From positions 1-23,439 of the IMG/VR virus record IMGVR_UViG_3300025402_000068: 23,439 nucleotides of DNA; one strand, 5' to 3'. The stretch's first letter is position 1. Each line of letters begins with the position of its first letter. Source of the DNA: a virus. Below are positions 1,824-12,864 of the stretch, one piece after another. Under the pieces are notes generated by a model. The model was not told where the DNA came from and did no database searches. It was given only the letters and a program-made list of their open reading frames with translations. The position numbers were made by a program, and so were the translations under genes.

Positions 1824-3950
1824 ATGGCTCTAGTGCTGTATGACCGAGTCCAACAGACTGGTTCTGCTAACACAACCGTAAGTTTTACATTAAGCGGAAG
1901 CGTTGCAGGGTATCAGTCTTTTGCCGTTGTAGGTAACGGAAACACCACCTATTATGGCGCTGTAGATGCTTCTGGTAACTGGGAAGTAGGTCTTGGCACT
2001 TACTCTACTTCTGGGCCAACATTAACACGCACAACGATTTTATCGTCTTCAAGCTCCAATACTGCGGTTAGCACGTTTAGTGGCTCTGTTAACATATTTG
2101 TTACATACCCTGCTGAAGATGCAGTTTATTTAAATGGCGGTAACGTAAGCTCATTAGGTACGATTACATCAGGAACTTGGAGTGCTACTACGATTGCCGT
2201 AGCTTCTGGCGGTACTGGCGTTACTACTTCTGCTAGCAATAGTGCTAACTCGGTTGTATTAAGAGATGCCAACGTAAATATAGCGGCAAATAATACGTTT
2301 AACGGAATTACAGTAACCACAGCAGCTAGTCTTACAACTACAATGACTGCGGCTTCTAGCTTTTATCAAAAGTTAACTGCGGGAACAGGCGGTCAAACTT
2401 TTAAGCTTCCGGATGCTACTACCGTACCTGCTGGCGCAACATACATTTTTGATAATGATTCTAGCGGGACTATGACCATTCAGGATAATGCTGGTGGTGC
2501 GGTAGATACTATTCAACCCGGAAGTATTGATTATATATTTTTAGAAGCGGGCAGTACAGTTGCCGGTTCTTGGAGTAACTATGCGTTAATTCCAGATACT
2601 TATGACTTTAATACAACCACTGCTTCTTTTGGTAACGCCGCAATTACTAATGCATCATGGAATGGCGTAGCAATTACTTCCGCTTATGGAGGTACAGGTT
2701 TAACTAGTTTTGGATCTTCTAACTACGCTTTATATTCCACATCACCTTCGATATTAACTGCTGGTACTTTGCCGGTTTTAGCTGGTGGTACAGGACAAAC
2801 TTCCGCTGCTAACGCCTTTAATGCATTAAGTCCAATTACTACCACTGGAGATTTAATTGTTGGTAACGGCACTAATAGCGCAACTCGCTTTGGTATTGGT
2901 TCAAGTGGATATGTATTAAGTTCTAATGGGTCAACTGTAGCTTGGACTGCTCCGGGCGGTTCCTCTATTCTTACAACTACTGACTTTACCGCAACGTCTG
3001 GTCAAACAACATTTAGCGTAACCTATACCCCAGCTTTATTACAAGGTGTTTATCGTAATGGTATTAAGTTAGGTTTGTCTGACTATACGGCTACAAACGG
3101 TACATCTATTGTTTTAAATACCGGTGCTATTACGGGCGACTTGATTGAGGTTCAGTATTTCTCTGCTTTAGCTACAACCACAACTGTTACATCATTTAGC
3201 GGTGGATCAACAGGATTAACGCCATCTTCTGCAACTTCTGGTGCGGTTACTTTATCTGGTACTTTAGCAGTTGGTAATGGTGGTACTGGAATAACAACAA
3301 CGCCGTCTAATGGACAGATTCCAATAGGAAATGGCACAAACTATACTGCAGCAACTTTAACTGCTGGTACTGCAATTAGCATTACAAACGCATCCGGATC
3401 GGTAACTATTGCAGGAGCTACTTCTGGTGTTACTGCTGGTTCATATACAACAGCTAATATTACGGTAGATGCGCAGGGTAGAGTTATTTCAGCTTCTAGT
3501 GGTTCGGGTGGCTCTACTGTTACTCCTACGACTACAAATGCTACTTACTACATAGTTGGCTCTTCTGCTACATCAGGAACTTTAACAGCTTATATTTCAA
3601 ATACTAATTCTGTTTCTTATAATGCTTCTACCGGTGCTTTAACTGCTGTATCGCATGTATCGTCTTCTGACGAACGTTTAAAACAAGATATTGAAACTAT
3701 TGCCGATGCTTTAACTAAAGTAGAAACTATGCGGGGCGTAACCTATTTAAGAAATGGTATACGTGAGATTGGTGTGGTGGCTCAAGAAGTAGAACGAGTT
3801 GTGCCGGAAGTAGTCCACACAGAAGATGGTGAATATGGTTATAAATCAGTATCTTACGGTAATATGGTCGGTCTATTAATTGAAGCAGTTAAAGAGCTAT
3901 CTGCAGAAGTAAAAGAACTAAAGGCAAAATTAAATGACACAAGCGAATAA
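1824..3950 (+). CDS. Tail fiber with C-terminal intramolecular chaperone (peptidase S74 domain)
   Basis: 708 residues. Residues 1-105 form a likely virion-anchoring domain (MALVLYDRVQQTG start, FVTYPAEDAVYLNGG end). The middle is a long Gly/Ser/Thr-rich beta shaft punctuated by GGTG motifs. The C-terminus from residue 615 is an S74 chaperone: S615-D-E-R-L-K620 carries the Ser and Lys expected five residues apart for self-cleavage in endosialidase-type fibers, followed by GVVAQEVERVVPE and a leucine-zipper-like final helix (AVKELSAEVKELKAKL). By family knowledge this domain helps the fiber trimerise and then cuts itself off, releasing about 94 residues. The last 17 bases overlap the next fiber gene in another frame. 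Confidence 0.88.
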   Translation: MALVLYDRVQQTGSANTTVSFTLSGSVAGYQSFAVVGNGNTTYYGAVDASGNWEVGLGTYSTSGPTLTRTTILSSSSSNTAVSTFSGSVNIFVTYPAEDAVYLNGGNVSSLGTITSGTWSATTIAVASGGTGVTTSASNSANSVVLRDANVNIAANNTFNGITVTTAASLTTTMTAASSFYQKLTAGTGGQTFKLPDATTVPAGATYIFDNDSSGTMTIQDNAGGAVDTIQPGSIDYIFLEAGSTVAGSWSNYALIPDTYDFNTTTASFGNAAITNASWNGVAITSAYGGTGLTSFGSSNYALYSTSPSILTAGTLPVLAGGTGQTSAANAFNALSPITTTGDLIVGNGTNSATRFGIGSSGYVLSSNGSTVAWTAPGGSSILTTTDFTATSGQTTFSVTYTPALLQGVYRNGIKLGLSDYTATNGTSIVLNTGAITGDLIEVQYFSALATTTTVTSFSGGSTGLTPSSATSGAVTLSGTLAVGNGGTGITTTPSNGQIPIGNGTNYTAATLTAGTAISITNASGSVTIAGATSGVTAGSYTTANITVDAQGRVISASSGSGGSTVTPTTTNATYYIVGSSATSGTLTAYISNTNSVSYNASTGALTAVSHVSSSDERLKQDIETIADALTKVETMRGVTYLRNGIREIGVVAQEVERVVPEVVHTEDGEYGYKSVSYGNMVGLLIEAVKELSAEVKELKAKLNDTSE
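3660..3677 (+). other. Predicted S74 autocleavage site (S-S-S-D-E-R)
   Basis: Codons 613-618 of the fiber. Cleavage is expected immediately before S615, the Ser of the SDERLK motif, with K620 just beyond as partner. This is inferred from the S74 family; cleavage itself cannot be seen in DNA. Confidence 0.65.
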
Positions 3951-5097
3951 CGTAGCTATTGAAAGCTCGCAAATAAACTCATCAGGAGTATTACAACCTG
4001 CTGGCGGCGGCACTGGAACTACTACATCTACTGGGTCTGGTTCTGTTGTATTGGCAACTAGCCCTACAGTTACTACACCAACTATAGACAAAATTAACAC
4101 TTCTGTTGCCAATACTTCATTAGGTGCTGGTGATGCTTCTATGTTAAAGAACCGCATTATCAATGGTGAATGTGTAGTAAATCAATATGCTTTAGGAACA
4201 GTCACTCCTGCTATCGGTACTGCAACTTATATTATTGATAGATGGAATACTTATCAAACTCAGTCATCTAAATTTACCATTCAGCAATCTTCAACTGCCC
4301 CAGCAGGGTTTACAAACTCTTTATTGGTAACATCTTCTTCTGCTTATTCAGTAGCTTCAGGTGATACTTTTACTGTTCAGCAATATATTGAAGGCTTGAA
4401 TTGTCGTGATTTGGCTTGGGGAACAGCAAACGCTAAAACAGTTACTTTGTCATTTTGGGTGCAATCTAGTTTAACTGGTACTTTTGGCGGTGCGTTGTCC
4501 AATAGTGCAGTAAGCCGTTCATATCCGTTTACCTATTCAATTCCAGTAGCTAATACATGGACTCAAATTAGCGTAATAATTGCTGGTGATACAGCAGGAA
4601 CTTGGCTCACAACCAATGGTGTTGGTATTCGTGTGTATTTTGGTTTAGGAGTTGGAACAACTCAAAGCGGAACCGCTGGTGCATGGGCTGGAGCACAATA
4701 CCAATCAGCCACAGGCGCAACATCCGTAGTAGGAACAAACGGAGCAACCTTCTACATTACTGGTGTTCAACTAGAAGTAGGAAGTAGTGCTACTGGATTT
4801 GAGTATCGTCAGTATCAGCAAGAGTTAGCTTTGTGTCAGAGGTATTATGAAACTGGTATTGCTGGTTGGCAAGGATACACAACAAGTGGTTCAGCTTTTG
4901 CAACATGGGTTCAATATGAAGTTTCAAAAAGAACATCTGCTACATTAACTGTAACAAATGCATATAATGGTGGTTCTTGGAGTTCTCCTTCTGGTTCTGA
5001 TGGAACTGTAAATGGATTTTTAACTAAACAAACTGCTGGATCAACTGCAAACTCCGCATATTATTTTAATAACTTTACTGCTAGCTCGGAGTTATAA
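3934..5097 (+). CDS. Second tail fiber / receptor-binding protein with jelly-roll-like domain
   Basis: 387 residues, starting 17 bases inside the end of the S74 fiber gene in another frame. Residues 1-60 are a linker with a GGGTG motif and TSPTVTTPTID. From about residue 70, the pattern KNRIINGECVVNQ, IDRWNTYQ, VQQYIEGLN, LSFWVQSS, then FYITGVQLEVGSSATGFEYR and ELALCQRYYE is one I recognise from a widespread family of phage fiber proteins with a carbohydrate-binding-module-like beta-sandwich. Sugar binding is inferred from that resemblance. The last 80 residues (GWQGYTTSG onward) are likely the variable receptor-contact part. A GGAG near the 3' end serves the following small gene. Confidence 0.75.
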   Translation: MTQANNVAIESSQINSSGVLQPAGGGTGTTTSTGSGSVVLATSPTVTTPTIDKINTSVANTSLGAGDASMLKNRIINGECVVNQYALGTVTPAIGTATYIIDRWNTYQTQSSKFTIQQSSTAPAGFTNSLLVTSSSAYSVASGDTFTVQQYIEGLNCRDLAWGTANAKTVTLSFWVQSSLTGTFGGALSNSAVSRSYPFTYSIPVANTWTQISVIIAGDTAGTWLTTNGVGIRVYFGLGVGTTQSGTAGAWAGAQYQSATGATSVVGTNGATFYITGVQLEVGSSATGFEYRQYQQELALCQRYYETGIAGWQGYTTSGSAFATWVQYEVSKRTSATLTVTNAYNGGSWSSPSGSDGTVNGFLTKQTAGSTANSAYYFNNFTASSEL

Positions 5098-5250
5098 ATG
5101 TATAAATTATTTAATAATTTAAATGGAAATAAAAGTGTAATTCGTTTATCAGACAATGCTTTTATTCCTTTTGACCCTGACAATACAGATTACCAAGCCT
5201 ATCTAAAATGGGTGGCTGAAGGAAACACCCCACTTCCTGCGGATAGCTAA
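5098..5250 (+). CDS. Small fiber-assembly-type protein (50 residues)
   Basis: An ATG directly follows the previous TAA, with GGAG six bases upstream, and its own stop overlaps the next ATG (TAATG). The product begins [10 protein letters not shown] and contains [16 protein letters not shown], then [20 protein letters not shown]. The IPxDPDNxDYQxYLxWxxEGNTP pattern is common in short proteins and domains placed just after phage fiber genes and is often linked to fiber assembly or attachment. Complete at 50 residues, perfectly tiled between neighbours and rich in recognisable motif, it is very likely a real gene. The chaperone role is inferred from position and similarity. Confidence 0.78.
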
Positions 5251-6152
5251 TGTTCGGAATAACCGCCTTTGCCCAAGCTCCATTTGCCGCATTAGGTGGT
5301 AATGCCTATGTATTTTCTCTTACTGAGGATTCTGGTTTAGCTGATTCTAACAGCCAAACTTTTGCATTTTTACAGTCTATTACAGAGCCTTTTACGATAA
5401 CGGACAATAATTCGCAAGCAGGGTTGTTTATTGAAACTATTTCAGAAGCATTTAGTTTAGCCGATTCCAATACTGCAACGGCAACCCTTTTAGAATCCAT
5501 TACAGAAAATGTAAGCATTGCAGATTCTGAGGCTATAACTGCCGCATTTGCCGTATCCGATACCGAAAACTTTAGTTTAGCCGATACACCATCTTCTTAT
5601 TTTGCCGCACTAGAAAGCATTACCCAAAGCGCTAATTTTGCCGACTCTAATACAAATCAGTTTGCGTTTGGGCAGTCTATTACTGAGCCATTTACTATGT
5701 CTGATTCTAGGGCCATTACTGCTCAATTTTCCCAATCAGTTTCCGAAGCATTTACCTTGGCTGACTTTGAAACTATAACTGCCCAGTTTGCTGCCTCTAG
5801 AACGGAAAACTTAACGCTGGCGGACTTAGAAACCATTGTTTCCGTGTTTTTCTTGTCTATCGTAGAAAACCTTAGCGTAGCCGATGCCAATACTGCAGCT
5901 TCTGGATTTATTTTAACTATTACTGAAAACTTGAATTTAGCCGATTCTAACGCTACCCAGTCGGCTTTCCTAGAGTCTATTACAGAAAACTTTAGTCTTT
6001 TAGACTCCCTATTTACCACAGGATGGTTTAAAATCAACGATAATCAGACAATTACGTGGAATGCCATTAACAACACTGGATCCGTAACTTGGTCTAATAT
6101 TGGGGATGCGCAAACCCCCAACTGGGTAGTAATTAATAATACGCAGCAATAA
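5250..6152 (+). CDS. Repeat protein: twelve 20-residue repeats and an 11-residue Trp repeat
   Basis: 300 residues. The ATG shares one base with the preceding stop (TAATG). Residues 24-263 are twelve consecutive units of exactly 20 residues with consensus near I-T-E-x-F-x-L-A-D-S-x(6)-F-x-x-S; the Glu at position 3 and Asp at position 9 are especially constant. Residues 259-300 then show Trp at 259, 270, 281 and 292, a strict 11-residue spacing, with Ile three residues after most of them. No enzyme motif, signal peptide or membrane segment is seen. A fiber, spike or beta-solenoid role is inferred from regular repeats, high Ser/Thr and position inside a fiber cluster. The fold is unproven. Confidence 0.75.
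   Translation: MFGITAFAQAPFAALGGNAYVFSLTEDSGLADSNSQTFAFLQSITEPFTITDNNSQAGLFIETISEAFSLADSNTATATLLESITENVSIADSEAITAAFAVSDTENFSLADTPSSYFAALESITQSANFADSNTNQFAFGQSITEPFTMSDSRAITAQFSQSVSEAFTLADFETITAQFAASRTENLTLADLETIVSVFFLSIVENLSVADANTAASGFILTITENLNLADSNATQSAFLESITENFSLLDSLFTTGWFKINDNQTITWNAINNTGSVTWSNIGDAQTPNWVVINNTQQ
5319..6038 (+). repeat. Twelve in-frame 60-bp coding repeats
   Basis: Each unit encodes 20 residues, without insertion or deletion across 240 codons. Units begin, in order, LTED, ITEP, ISEA, ITEN, DTEN, ITQS, ITEP, VSEA, RTEN, IVEN, ITEN, ITEN. DNA identity between units is only partial, so the repeat is ancient and kept at protein level. Confidence 0.88.
6024..6149 (+). repeat. 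Four-unit 11-residue Trp repeat at the C-terminus
   Basis: Units WFKINDNQTIT, WNAINNTGSVT, WSNIGDAQTPN and a shortened WVVINNTQQ run back to back. The first overlaps the last 20-residue unit. Confidence 0.8.
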
Positions 6153-6160
6153 GGATAAGT

Positions 6161-6868
6161 ATGTCATCTTCATATACAACTAGCTTAAAAATCCAAGAAA
6201 TTGGGAACGGCGAGCAGTCGGGAATTTGGGGTTCTACGACCAATACAAACTGGCAGTTAATTGAACAAGCCGTAGCTGGTGTACAGACCATTACTATGGC
6301 AAACGCCAACTATACCCTATCAAATCTTAATGGTTTGCTAGACGAAGCCCGCAATATGGTTTTGGTAGTTACAGGAACAAACAACACTACCTATCAAGTT
6401 ATTGCCCCACTAGTTCCTAAAATGTATGTGGTTACTAACAATACAACTGGTGGCAATTCCATTACTATCGGTGCTTCTACTGGGTCGGTTATTACTATCC
6501 CTAACGGTGTAACTGCCCAAGTATATTGTGATGGATCTACTGGTTTTTACTCAGCGCAAACCGGATCTGCTGGTAATTTTTTAATTAATGGTAACTTAAG
6601 TGTTACTGGTAATCTAGTAGATGTAGGCTCTTTAACGGGGTCTACTATTACGGCATCCAACCAATTTTCAGGACCCGGAACAGGGTTAACTGGAACCGCA
6701 TCAAGTTTAACTACAGGTTCTGCAAATACCCTAACAACAACTAATTTTTCAATTTCTGAATCTGGTGGAAAGTTGTATATTTATTATCAAGGCACACCAG
6801 TTGCATCAATAAGCTCTACCGGCGCTATAGTTTCTGCTAGTACTATAACTCCAAACGGAACACCATAA
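6161..6868 (+). CDS. Fiber/structural protein with 'TSLKIQEIGNGEQSGIWGSTTN' type N-terminus
   Basis: 235 residues, preceded by AAGGA at the upstream stop. The N-terminal about 45 residues (SLKIQEIGNGEQSG, then TNWQLIEQAVAG) match a very common N-terminal domain of aquatic phage fiber-like proteins, probably the virion-attachment part. Then comes a beta-rich domain with VLVVTGTNNTTYQVIAPLVPK and VTNNTTGGNSITI. Residues 140-180 include a short shaft (INGNLSVTGNLVDVG). The last 35 residues (GKLYIYYQGTPVASISSTG, ending TPNGTP) are mirrored at the end of the 7098 gene. Its precise site in the tail is unknown. Confidence 0.65.
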   Translation: MSSSYTTSLKIQEIGNGEQSGIWGSTTNTNWQLIEQAVAGVQTITMANANYTLSNLNGLLDEARNMVLVVTGTNNTTYQVIAPLVPKMYVVTNNTTGGNSITIGASTGSVITIPNGVTAQVYCDGSTGFYSAQTGSAGNFLINGNLSVTGNLVDVGSLTGSTITASNQFSGPGTGLTGTASSLTTGSANTLTTTNFSISESGGKLYIYYQGTPVASISSTGAIVSASTITPNGTP

Positions 6869-6877
6869 GGACAAATA

Positions 6878-7096
6878 ATGGCTCAATTTACAATAAGCGG
6901 TGACACAAGTGGTACTTTAGCTTTAGCTGCCCAAGCATCTGCTGGTAGCACAGTTATTACTTTTCCTAACGTAACCGGTAACGCTTTGGCTTCCACTGCG
7001 GTATCAAGTTCATCTACCAATACTGTGACTAATAAAATTGCCGTAAACATTAATGGCACAACGTACTACTTGCTAGCTTCTACATCAGGAACCTAA
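6878..7096 (+). CDS. Short fiber-module protein (72 residues)
   Basis: AAGGA overlaps the upstream stop and sits about 8 bases before the ATG. The product has a beta-type segment FTISGDTSGTLALAAQASAGSTVITFP and ends IAVNINGTTYYLLASTSGT. Both are modules I associate with larger phage fiber proteins, where they occur joined to other domains. Here they form a free-standing short gene with its own start and ribosome site. It could work as a separate subunit or be a split remnant of a larger fiber; the clean gene borders favour a real gene. Confidence 0.6.
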   Translation: MAQFTISGDTSGTLALAAQASAGSTVITFPNVTGNALASTAVSSSSTNTVTNKIAVNINGTTYYLLASTSGT

Positions 7097-7097
7097 T

Positions 7098-7439
7098 ATG
7101 GCAACTACATTAACAGCCGGCACAACTACGGCAACTTCGCTTGTTATTAATTCGGATACTTCTGGCACTTTAGCTTTTGTAGGCGGAACTGGAACCGCCA
7201 TGACCATTACTAGTGGTGTTGTTACTTTATCTACACCTTTAGCGGTGACTTCTGGCGGTACGGGAAATTCAGCAGGCACAGCGCCTTATGCAAATGCTAT
7301 AGCGAATACTGGTGGATGGAACGTAACGCCTAGCGGTACAAAACTTTATTTTAATTACAATGGCACAAACGTAGCTAGCTTGGATTCGTCCGGTAATCTT
7401 AGAGTGCTAACATCGGTTATATCCGGTACTACCCCATAA
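7098..7439 (+). CDS. Short fiber-module protein (113 residues)
   Basis: The ATG follows the previous TAA by one base, so translation is probably coupled. The N-terminus (LVINSDTSGTLAFVGGTG) repeats the DTSGTLA peptide of the preceding gene. The middle has an LAVTSGGTGNSAGTAPYANA linker. The C-terminus (GTKLYFNYNGTNVASLDSSGN, ending ISGTTP) parallels that of the 6161 gene. This mosaic of shared pieces suggests module shuffling or duplication among fiber genes. Role: probable fiber or tail-surface subunit, inferred from composition and neighbours. Confidence 0.6.
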   Translation: MATTLTAGTTTATSLVINSDTSGTLAFVGGTGTAMTITSGVVTLSTPLAVTSGGTGNSAGTAPYANAIANTGGWNVTPSGTKLYFNYNGTNVASLDSSGNLRVLTSVISGTTP

Positions 7440-10374: not shown

Positions 10375-12864
10375 ATGCCATTACAAAAACTACAATTTAG
10401 ACCCGGTTTAAACCGTGAAGGTACTATCTACTCTAATGAGGGCGGCTGGTATGACGGGGATAAAATTCGGTTTCGTTCTGGACTACCAGAAAAAATAGGT
10501 GGTTGGGTTCAAGTATCTGCAAATCAATTTCAAGGTGTTTGCCGGTCTATTTGGAACTGGCTTGATGGTGATTCTGGTGTAGGTAATCAATATATTGGTG
10601 TAGGCACAAGCTCTAAATACTACATTTATTCTGGCGGTGTATATAACGACATTACACCTATCTATAAAACTGAAACCCTTTCAGGACCTTTTACAACTGC
10701 ATCGGGTTCATCTATTGTTACAGTAACTGATAATGCATATAGCCCAGCAGCGGGAGACTATGTAAACTTTTCTGGCGGCACTGCAATCGGAGGGGTATTA
10801 GTTTCTGGCGATTATATGGTTGCTTCGGTATTATCAGGTACCCAATACACAATTATTGTTGGTCAAACCGCTTCTGCAACGGTTACAGGCGGTGGTACTG
10901 TTACGGCCCAATATGAATATCCGTCAGGTAATACTGTTTACTCTGTAGGTACTGGATGGGGCGCAGGGCCTTGGGGCGGAATTACTCCAGCGATTGCTAC
11001 TTTATTACCCAATAACCCATTTCAAATTAATGCAGGTAGCAACATAGTTACGGTAACTCAACCTAATCACGGATTTACTGCAGCGGGGCAATATGTAGCT
11101 TTTACTAATGCTTTAACCTTATCCACTACACCAACTACTTATTCTTTTACATCTGGTACTTACGGGTTTAGATCTGGTACTTATGATCTTTCTGGCGCTA
11201 CCTATGATACCTTGGGTTCTAACTATTTAAACGGAACATTCACGATTGCTAGCATAACAAATGCAAGTGCTTATACGATTGTGATTCAAAAAACTGTGCT
11301 TGCCAATATGGTGGGTGGCGGTGCCGGTGTTATTGAGTATGGACAATCTGGTTCACAAGGGTGGGGTCAAGCATATTCATCGGGTATTGGTTCTCAGTTA
11401 CGCCTTTGGTCTAATGATAATTTTGGAGCCGACTTAGTTATTGCACCTCGTGGCGGACCAGTATTTTATTGGCAAGATGTTAATGGGGTATCTACCCGCT
11501 CTATATATTTAAGTAGTTTAGCTAATACTACAACTGCGGTAAGCGATGCTTCTACTTTTACGGCTAGCGCCACGTCTATTACTGTAACGTCTGCCAACGC
11601 TCCGTATATTTATCCTTACATGTATATTACGGGTAACAATATTTCTGCCGGCACTCAAGTTGCTTCTACGTATATAACGGGCGCTACAACGGTACCTATT
11701 ACGTCCCCCACTACTGGAACTAGCTCGTCCATATATAACTTCTCTTATGCAGGCGCATTTGTCCCTACGCAGACATACCAAGTTATTTCATCAGAGGTAC
11801 AAGAGTTTTTAATTTGTTTTGGCGCTAACCAATATAGTCCTAATAACGCTAATACGGCATTTAACCCGTTAACTGTGCGTTGGTCTGACCAAGCTAATCA
11901 ATACCAATGGATTCCAATTATTACCAATCAGTCAGGTGAATACACTTTAACTAACGGCTCATACATTATGGGCGCACGGGCAACCCGCCAAGAGATTTTA
12001 GTTTGGACTGATTCAGCTATTTATTCTATGCAGTATATTGGCGCTCCTTATGTTTGGGGCTTTCAGATTTTGATGGACAACATATCTATCATGTCACCTA
12101 ACTGCATGATTACAGTAAACAATATTACTTACTGGATGGGACGAGACCGTTTCTATATGTATGACGGTACAGTTAAAACCTTACCATGCGCGTTAAAACA
12201 ATACATATTTGAAGACTTAAACCAAAATCAATCCTACCAAGTATTTGCTGGCGCTAATGAAGGTTTTAATGAAGTATGGTGGTTCTATTGCAGCAACTCA
12301 AGCCAAGACACTAAAGTAGATAAGTATGTGGTTTATAACTATTTAGATCAATGCTGGTACTACGGTAGCATGGCAAGAACTGCTTGGTATCAAACTGGAA
12401 CTCAGCCTTACCCTATTGCAGCGGATTACAACGGCAGATTGCTATACCATGAGAATGGTAATGATGATAATTCAGTACAGGGCGTAACCACACCTATAAA
12501 TGCTTATATTCAGTCTTCAGACTTTGACATTGGCGATGGTAATAACTTTGGCTTTGTATGGCGGATGTTACCTGACGTAAACTTTAATAGCTCAACAACT
12601 AATCAGCCGTCGGTCACTATCCAGCTTCAACCTCGATTAAATTCGGGTACGGCTTACAATACAACTGCGGATAATCCCACAGCGCAAAGCACCCAGAATT
12701 TCTCTACTAATGTGCCAGCTTATACGGTTAACCAGTTTACTGGACAGGTCTATACCCGTGTTCGGGGTCGCCAAATGGCATTTAGATTGCAGTCTACTGG
12801 TACTGGGGTAGCTTGGCAGCTGGGCGCTCCACGTATTGATATTCGTATGGATGGTCGTAGATAA
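10375..12864 (+). CDS. Tail nozzle / DNA-stabilisation-like protein (P22 gp10 type)
   Basis: 829 residues, beginning MPLQKLQFRPGLNREGT, then NEGGWYDGDKIRFRSGLPEKIGGW and NQYIGVGTSSKYYIYSGG, then DITP. This N-terminus and the later YSMQYIGAPYVWGFQIL, MITVNNITYWMGRDRFYMYDG and WWFYCSNSS blades are typical of phage proteins of the P22 gp10-like, beta-propeller nozzle type that close the tail and hold packaged DNA. The regular core is interrupted by at least three Gly/Ser/Thr-rich inserts: residues 104-182, 215-322 and about 388-462. Inserts one and two share a module. The stop overlaps the next ATG (TAATG). The family is assigned by recalled motifs, so tail rather than nozzle is possible. Confidence 0.65.
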   Translation: MPLQKLQFRPGLNREGTIYSNEGGWYDGDKIRFRSGLPEKIGGWVQVSANQFQGVCRSIWNWLDGDSGVGNQYIGVGTSSKYYIYSGGVYNDITPIYKTETLSGPFTTASGSSIVTVTDNAYSPAAGDYVNFSGGTAIGGVLVSGDYMVASVLSGTQYTIIVGQTASATVTGGGTVTAQYEYPSGNTVYSVGTGWGAGPWGGITPAIATLLPNNPFQINAGSNIVTVTQPNHGFTAAGQYVAFTNALTLSTTPTTYSFTSGTYGFRSGTYDLSGATYDTLGSNYLNGTFTIASITNASAYTIVIQKTVLANMVGGGAGVIEYGQSGSQGWGQAYSSGIGSQLRLWSNDNFGADLVIAPRGGPVFYWQDVNGVSTRSIYLSSLANTTTAVSDASTFTASATSITVTSANAPYIYPYMYITGNNISAGTQVASTYITGATTVPITSPTTGTSSSIYNFSYAGAFVPTQTYQVISSEVQEFLICFGANQYSPNNANTAFNPLTVRWSDQANQYQWIPIITNQSGEYTLTNGSYIMGARATRQEILVWTDSAIYSMQYIGAPYVWGFQILMDNISIMSPNCMITVNNITYWMGRDRFYMYDGTVKTLPCALKQYIFEDLNQNQSYQVFAGANEGFNEVWWFYCSNSSQDTKVDKYVVYNYLDQCWYYGSMARTAWYQTGTQPYPIAADYNGRLLYHENGNDDNSVQGVTTPINAYIQSSDFDIGDGNNFGFVWRMLPDVNFNSSTTNQPSVTIQLQPRLNSGTAYNTTADNPTAQSTQNFSTNVPAYTVNQFTGQVYTRVRGRQMAFRLQSTGTGVAWQLGAPRIDIRMDGRR
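10705..10920 (+). repeat. Insert module A in the nozzle-like gene
   Basis: Encodes residues 111-182: GSSIVTVTDNAYSPAAGDYVNF, then SGDYMVASVLSGTQYTI and VTGGGTVTAQYEY. The same plan recurs in module B, so it is an internally duplicated accessory domain. Confidence 0.6.
11035..11340 (+). repeat. Insert module B in the nozzle-like gene, with a further Gly-Thr-Tyr insert
   Basis: Encodes residues 221-322: GSNIVTVTQPNHGFTAAGQYVAF, then LNGTFTIASITNASAYTI and VGGGAGVIEYG, parallel to module A. Residues 253-284 interrupt it with a short SGTYGF, SGTYDL, SGATYD repeat at 11131-11226. Confidence 0.6.

What the first reader, a model, noticed from the sequence alone, without database searches (positions are those of the whole stretch)
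5319..6038. Twelve perfectly phased 20-residue repeats
240 codons hold twelve units of exactly 20 residues with constant I-T-E, L-A-D-S, Phe and Ser positions and no length drift, although the DNA has diverged. That implies strong structural selection, perhaps one solenoid turn per unit. The repeat count may vary among relatives and set a fiber length.
Basis: partly seen in the sequence, partly recalled or inferred. Interest (0 to 1): 0.62.

Follow-up and report, generated by a model that had tools for sequence, protein, structure and literature searches.

The report
Phased repeat shaft in phage protein
A short-tailed aquatic phage carries a protein whose middle is built from about twelve 20-residue units; relatives keep the 20-residue step while unit number (8-23) and even unit type change, which fits an interchangeable, length-quantised shaft on the virion, although neither its shape nor its place in the virion has been shown.

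Summary
ORF 5250-6152 (300 aa) is an N-terminal cap (1-23), an array of 20-residue units (24-263) and a tail of 11-residue Trp repeats. Lag-20 self-identity is 0.35 (z 15.9); D9 is in 12/12 units, E3 in 11/12, the other 'constant' positions only 7-10/12. Unit 12 runs into the Trp tail. Among 103 segmentable IMG/VR proteins, 91% of interior units are exactly 20 aa and array length is quantised in 20-residue steps (8-23 units, mostly 12). dN/dS of 0.10-0.21 shows purifying selection. Distant relatives keep the cap, or the Trp tail, around unrelated 20- or 22-residue arrays: the protein is modular. The gene lies among tail-fibre genes. Best reading: a tail-fibre-like virion protein with a docking cap and a repeat shaft. 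'One solenoid turn per unit' is not established: one AlphaFold2 run gave a moderate-confidence beta-solenoid, a second with a deeper alignment gave no structure (pLDDT 42), and AF2 is known to invent solenoids for repeats. No credible Pfam or PDB match; PHROG matches are weak. An uncharacterised variant of a known kind; function inferred from context.

The parts
5250..6152 (+). ORF of the repeat protein, 300 aa, ATG start
   Evidence: the ORF listing; 100% identical in L003-L005, conserved in further loci
5250..5318 (+). N-terminal cap [23 protein letters not shown]; inferred docking peptide
   Evidence: M1 F2 G3 F7 Q9 L15 invariant in 63 sequences; the only region aligning to the class with an unrelated centre (hhalign E 3.7e-8)
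5319..6038 (+). array of twelve 20-residue units (consensus about ITENFSLADSNTITAAFLES); unit 12 merges into the Trp tail
6024..6149 (+). C-terminal tail of 11-residue Trp repeats (W259, W270, W281, W292)
   Evidence: Trp spacing 11 in 280/287 gaps among relatives; aligns to tails of the 22-residue class
6161..6868 (+). downstream fibre-type gene (MSSSYTTSLKIQEIGNGEQSG...), conserved neighbour
   Evidence: matched in 55 of 68 relative loci, usually directly downstream; several of the rest are cut off by the contig end; homologous to N-termini of annotated tail fibre proteins
3934..5097 (+). tail fibre protein gene upstream
   Evidence: phrog_4492 tail fiber E 8e-48
1824..3950 (+). tail fibre gene with Peptidase_S74 chaperone
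   Evidence: Pfam PF13884 E 1e-12
10375..12864 (+). stabilization (gp10-like) protein, marks a short-tailed phage tail module
   Evidence: phrog_3287 E 1e-64; stabilization/needle head annotations in relatives

Best explanation
A tail-fibre-like accessory virion protein of a short-tailed (P22-type tail module) phage. The conserved ~20-residue cap docks it to the tail; the central array of 20-residue beta-rich units forms a rigid shaft, most likely as an oligomer because a single chain does not give a stable prediction; the Trp repeats form a distal or capping element. Adding or removing whole units changes shaft length in fixed steps, and whole arrays are exchanged between lineages. Shown: phasing, quantised number, purifying selection, modularity, gene context. 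Inferred: virion location, docking, oligomer, length effect.
For: Phase 20 or 22 in the complete relatives tested, including those with unrelated unit sequence. Array length clusters at multiples of 20 also outside the 12-unit class (n=23, Rayleigh R 0.95, p~1e-9). Bulky hydrophobics at odd positions 55/120 against 17/120 at even (p 1e-7); across 500 units E/D3 97%, bulky 7 89%, D/E9 92%, bulky 17 93%. dN/dS of repeats 0.10-0.21 against six relatives. Unit order is kept (in-register identity exceeds every shifted register). Recent whole-unit duplications in L029 and L043. Cap-only and tail-only homology to other array classes. Fibre-gene context; weak hits to phrog_28766 'tail fiber protein' in 3 of 63 members.
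Against: No proteomics, structure or annotated function for any relative found: cultured carriers are annotated hypothetical or with implausible names. AF2 gives no robust fold. Most relatives keep about 12 units, so length is conserved more than varied.
Confidence: 0.6

Rival explanations
1. Monomeric beta-solenoid, one coil per 20-residue unit with two strands and two corners, E3 and D9 forming ladders that may bind Ca2+ as in the antifreeze beta-helix 3p4g.
For: First AF2 run: two strands per unit, array pLDDT about 54-78; structure comparison best with 3p4g (Z 20.8, rmsd 2.9, 237 residues) and curli CsgA 8c50 (Z 19.5, rmsd 9.3). All-odd alternation would close on a 20-residue coil. 32 D+E against 3 K+R in the array.
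Against: Second AF2 run with 63 register-matched homologues: pLDDT 41.7, pTM 0.12, no strands; four of five models of the first run below 50. Foldseek found no PDB match at E<=0.001. AF2 is documented to build unrealistic solenoids with stacked charges, and calcium-dependent antifreeze proteins are named there as a possible source (PMC11795689).
Confidence: 0.2
2. Flexible, largely disordered low-complexity linker whose repeats only reflect duplication.
For: Second AF2 model is low-confidence coil; Ser/Thr about 27%.
Against: Hydrophobic alternation, near-invariant E3/D9/F17, 20-residue phase kept over units only 38% alike, purifying selection.
Confidence: 0.1
3. Non-virion or transient protein (assembly factor, secreted protein) encoded in the tail region.
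For: No direct evidence of incorporation into the virion.
Against: Position among fibre and tail genes in most relatives.
Confidence: 0.1

Closest known systems
Uncharacterised proteins A0A6J5N9D9 and, more weakly, A0A6J7X0B7, A0A6J5Q0E6 (uncultured Caudovirales phage, BFVD)
   Same: A0A6J5N9D9: 42% identity over 277 alignment columns, Foldseek E 8e-14
   Different: No function or experiment; A0A6J5N9D9 is longer (480 aa)
HTVC023P gp68, Phage DSL-LC04 WJZ48131.1, Methylophilales phage Venkman gp51
   Same: Similar gene position beside fibre/stabilization genes; related cap and/or Trp-rich tail; 20- or 22-residue phased centre
   Different: Centre sequence unrelated to this unit (profile alignment covers cap or tail only)
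Curlin repeats / CsgA
   Same: Two strands per ~20-residue unit in the first AF2 model
   Different: No Curlin match in Pfam; acid-rich units
Triple beta-spiral and other trimeric phage fibre shafts
   Same: Works like: rigid repeat shaft between dock and tip (inference)
   Different: Triple beta-spiral unit is about 15 residues (own knowledge), not 20; trimer not tested

Membership tests
Tailed-phage tail fibre (functional kind) | Encoded in the tail-fibre gene cluster | tested here: met
Tailed-phage tail fibre (functional kind) | Conserved N-terminal part with exchangeable distal part | tested here: met
   pattern of conservation met; docking itself not tested
Tailed-phage tail fibre (functional kind) | Present in virion, oligomeric, binds host | not testable with these tools
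   no proteomics or complex prediction available
Tailed-phage tail fibre (functional kind) | Sequence match to a fibre family | tested here: inconclusive
   phrog_28766 in 3 of 63 members, best E 1e-4; no plausible Pfam match
Beta-solenoid proteins | One coil per repeat in a confident structure | tested here: inconclusive
   moderate, absent; AF2 bias
Curlin repeat family (PF07012) | Match to the Pfam curlin profile | tested here: not met
   not among the matches of the window protein at E<=1, nor the 25 commonest of 63 members
Triple beta-spiral | ~15-residue repeat (own knowledge) | tested here: not met
   period is 20; trimer not testable

The most novel reading that the evidence does not exclude
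An undescribed oligomeric fibre fold with a 20-residue, two-strand unit and a conserved Glu/Asp ladder (metal-bound or otherwise compensated), used as a length-quantised shaft that lineages swap as a cassette between a fixed cap and a Trp-repeat tail.
Probability: 0.25. Interest if true: 0.65.

Novelty: new variant of a known kind. Interest (0 to 1): 0.42.

Why it matters
At least 267 relatives in IMG/VR but no Pfam family and no function: a widespread aquatic phage protein with clean modular rules. It offers a natural length series (8-23 units) and natural shaft swaps for testing how phages tune fibre reach, and a good blind test for structure predictors on natural diverged repeats.

Tried and rejected
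Noncoding or chance repeat: rejected (shuffles, dN/dS). DNA-level recent array: rejected for the window, no unit pair above 65% DNA identity; recent duplications do occur in L029 and L043. Antisense ORFs 5306-5518 and 5723-6037: not pursued, probably shadows of the repeat frame. Pfam hits such as RAD24_helical, OSCP, Glyoxalase_8, all weak and unrelated: treated as spurious. PDB by sequence: none. GenBank phages by the whole protein: none. Bacterial genome contigs: 80 pattern matches but no relative, so no prophage copies or hosts found. Literature: the cap sequence was not found in papers, no paper on 20-residue phage fibre repeats. The first AF2 solenoid was not accepted at face value because the second run failed to reproduce it. 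The two IMG/VR scans overlap in contigs; proteins were deduplicated by sequence.

Full report
Observation. The ORF at 5250-6152 (+) encodes 300 residues. From residue 24 it reads as twelve 20-residue units without indels. Self-identity peaks at lags 20, 40, 60 (z 15.9, 12.0, 10.7); no shuffle exceeded 0.169 at any lag, against 0.35 observed. Units are 38% alike as protein and 50% as DNA, third positions 38%. The strongest columns are D9 (12/12), E3 (11/12), F17 (10/12). The end of unit 12 (WFKIN) is the start of a second phased repeat: Trp every 11 residues (280 of 287 gaps in relatives).

Family. One scan of IMG/VR gave 68 loci; a second found 267 relatives and kept 80 loci. Of 108 distinct complete proteins, 103 could be segmented with a cyclic profile: 8 to 23 units, 78 of them with 11-12 by that counter, which can miss a terminal unit. 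Measured instead from residue 23 to the first Trp-tail motif, 66 of 93 proteins with the motif have the 12-unit length (233-237 residues). After removal of near-duplicates, the 23 others have centres of 156, 174-176, 214, 254, 295, 315-317, 334, 394 and 455 residues, that is, steps of 20 within two residues (Rayleigh R 0.95). Interior units are 20 aa in 91% and 21 in 8%; in 12-unit proteins the 21-aa units fall mostly at unit positions 3, 6 and 7.

Evolution. Against six close relatives the repeats show dN/dS 0.10-0.21. Unit order is preserved: at 40-48% identity, 2-6 of 12 units still match best the unit of the same index, where one would be expected by chance, and in-register identity exceeds every shifted register. 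So the array is old and stable here. Elsewhere it turns over: L043 holds two consecutive units copied exactly four units further on, its relative L050 one such unit at 97%, and L029 (22-23 units) many pairs at 80-88% DNA identity.

Modularity. The complete relatives tested show a period of 20 or 22, even those whose units are unrelated; the signal is weakest in L070. Profile comparison with the L066/Venkman class aligns only the cap (E 3.7e-8); with the HTVC023P class only the Trp tail (E 4e-9). The array thus behaves as a cassette between conserved ends.

Context. The gene follows two tail-fibre genes (S74 chaperone; phrog_4492) and precedes a gene whose product matches N-termini of annotated tail fibre proteins; that downstream gene was found in 55 of 68 loci, several of the others being cut off by the contig end. 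A gp10-like stabilization protein follows further on. In cultured phages the counterparts lie in a similar place and are annotated hypothetical or with implausible names.

Structure. Run 1 (23 sequences) gave an all-beta repeat with array pLDDT about 54-78, cap and tail below 50; only one of five models exceeded 50 on average. Its best structural neighbour is the Ca2+-dependent antifreeze beta-helix 3p4g (Z 20.8). Run 2 (63 register-matched sequences) gave pLDDT 41.7, pTM 0.12 and no strands. Pratt et al. (PMC11795689) show that AF2 invents solenoids for repeats, with stacked acids, and name calcium-dependent antifreeze proteins as a possible cause; they also found AF2 more reliable where natural repeats have diverged, as here. 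The array has 32 acids and 3 bases. I therefore leave the fold open. Bulky residues at odd positions (p 1e-7) argue for ordered beta structure; failure of the monomer argues, weakly, for an oligomer.

Mechanism. Most likely a virion-attached fibre-like protein: the cap docks, the array forms a shaft, Trp repeats finish it, unit number sets length. Phasing, quantisation, selection and modularity are shown; the rest is inference.

Novelty. No Pfam family, no PDB relative by sequence; homologues exist in databases as uncharacterised proteins. A widespread, uncharacterised variant of a known kind (phage fibre-like repeat proteins).

Noticed in passing
6024-6149: Second phased repeat: Trp spaced exactly 11 residues, 2-12 Trp among relatives; number moderately correlated with unit number (r 0.49).
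   Followed up: partly
5250-5318; L071 14269-15399 (DSL-LC04): Cap motif F-A-Q-x-P-F-A resembles W-G-Q-V-P-W-G near the start of the DSL-LC04 protein: possibly one docking motif with Phe or Trp.
   Followed up: no
6878-7096 and 7098-7439: Two tiny fibre-like ORFs (TISGDTSGTLAL... / LVINSDTSGTLAF...) next to the fibre genes, recurring in several relatives; possibly fragments or modular fibre pieces.
   Followed up: no
L029 4001-5830: 609-residue relative with 22-23 units and 12 Trp, with recent unit duplications.
   Followed up: partly
L026-L028 and L042, C-terminal tail: A 45-residue gap between two Trp: an insertion containing FGGxxFAGS within the Trp tail.
   Followed up: no
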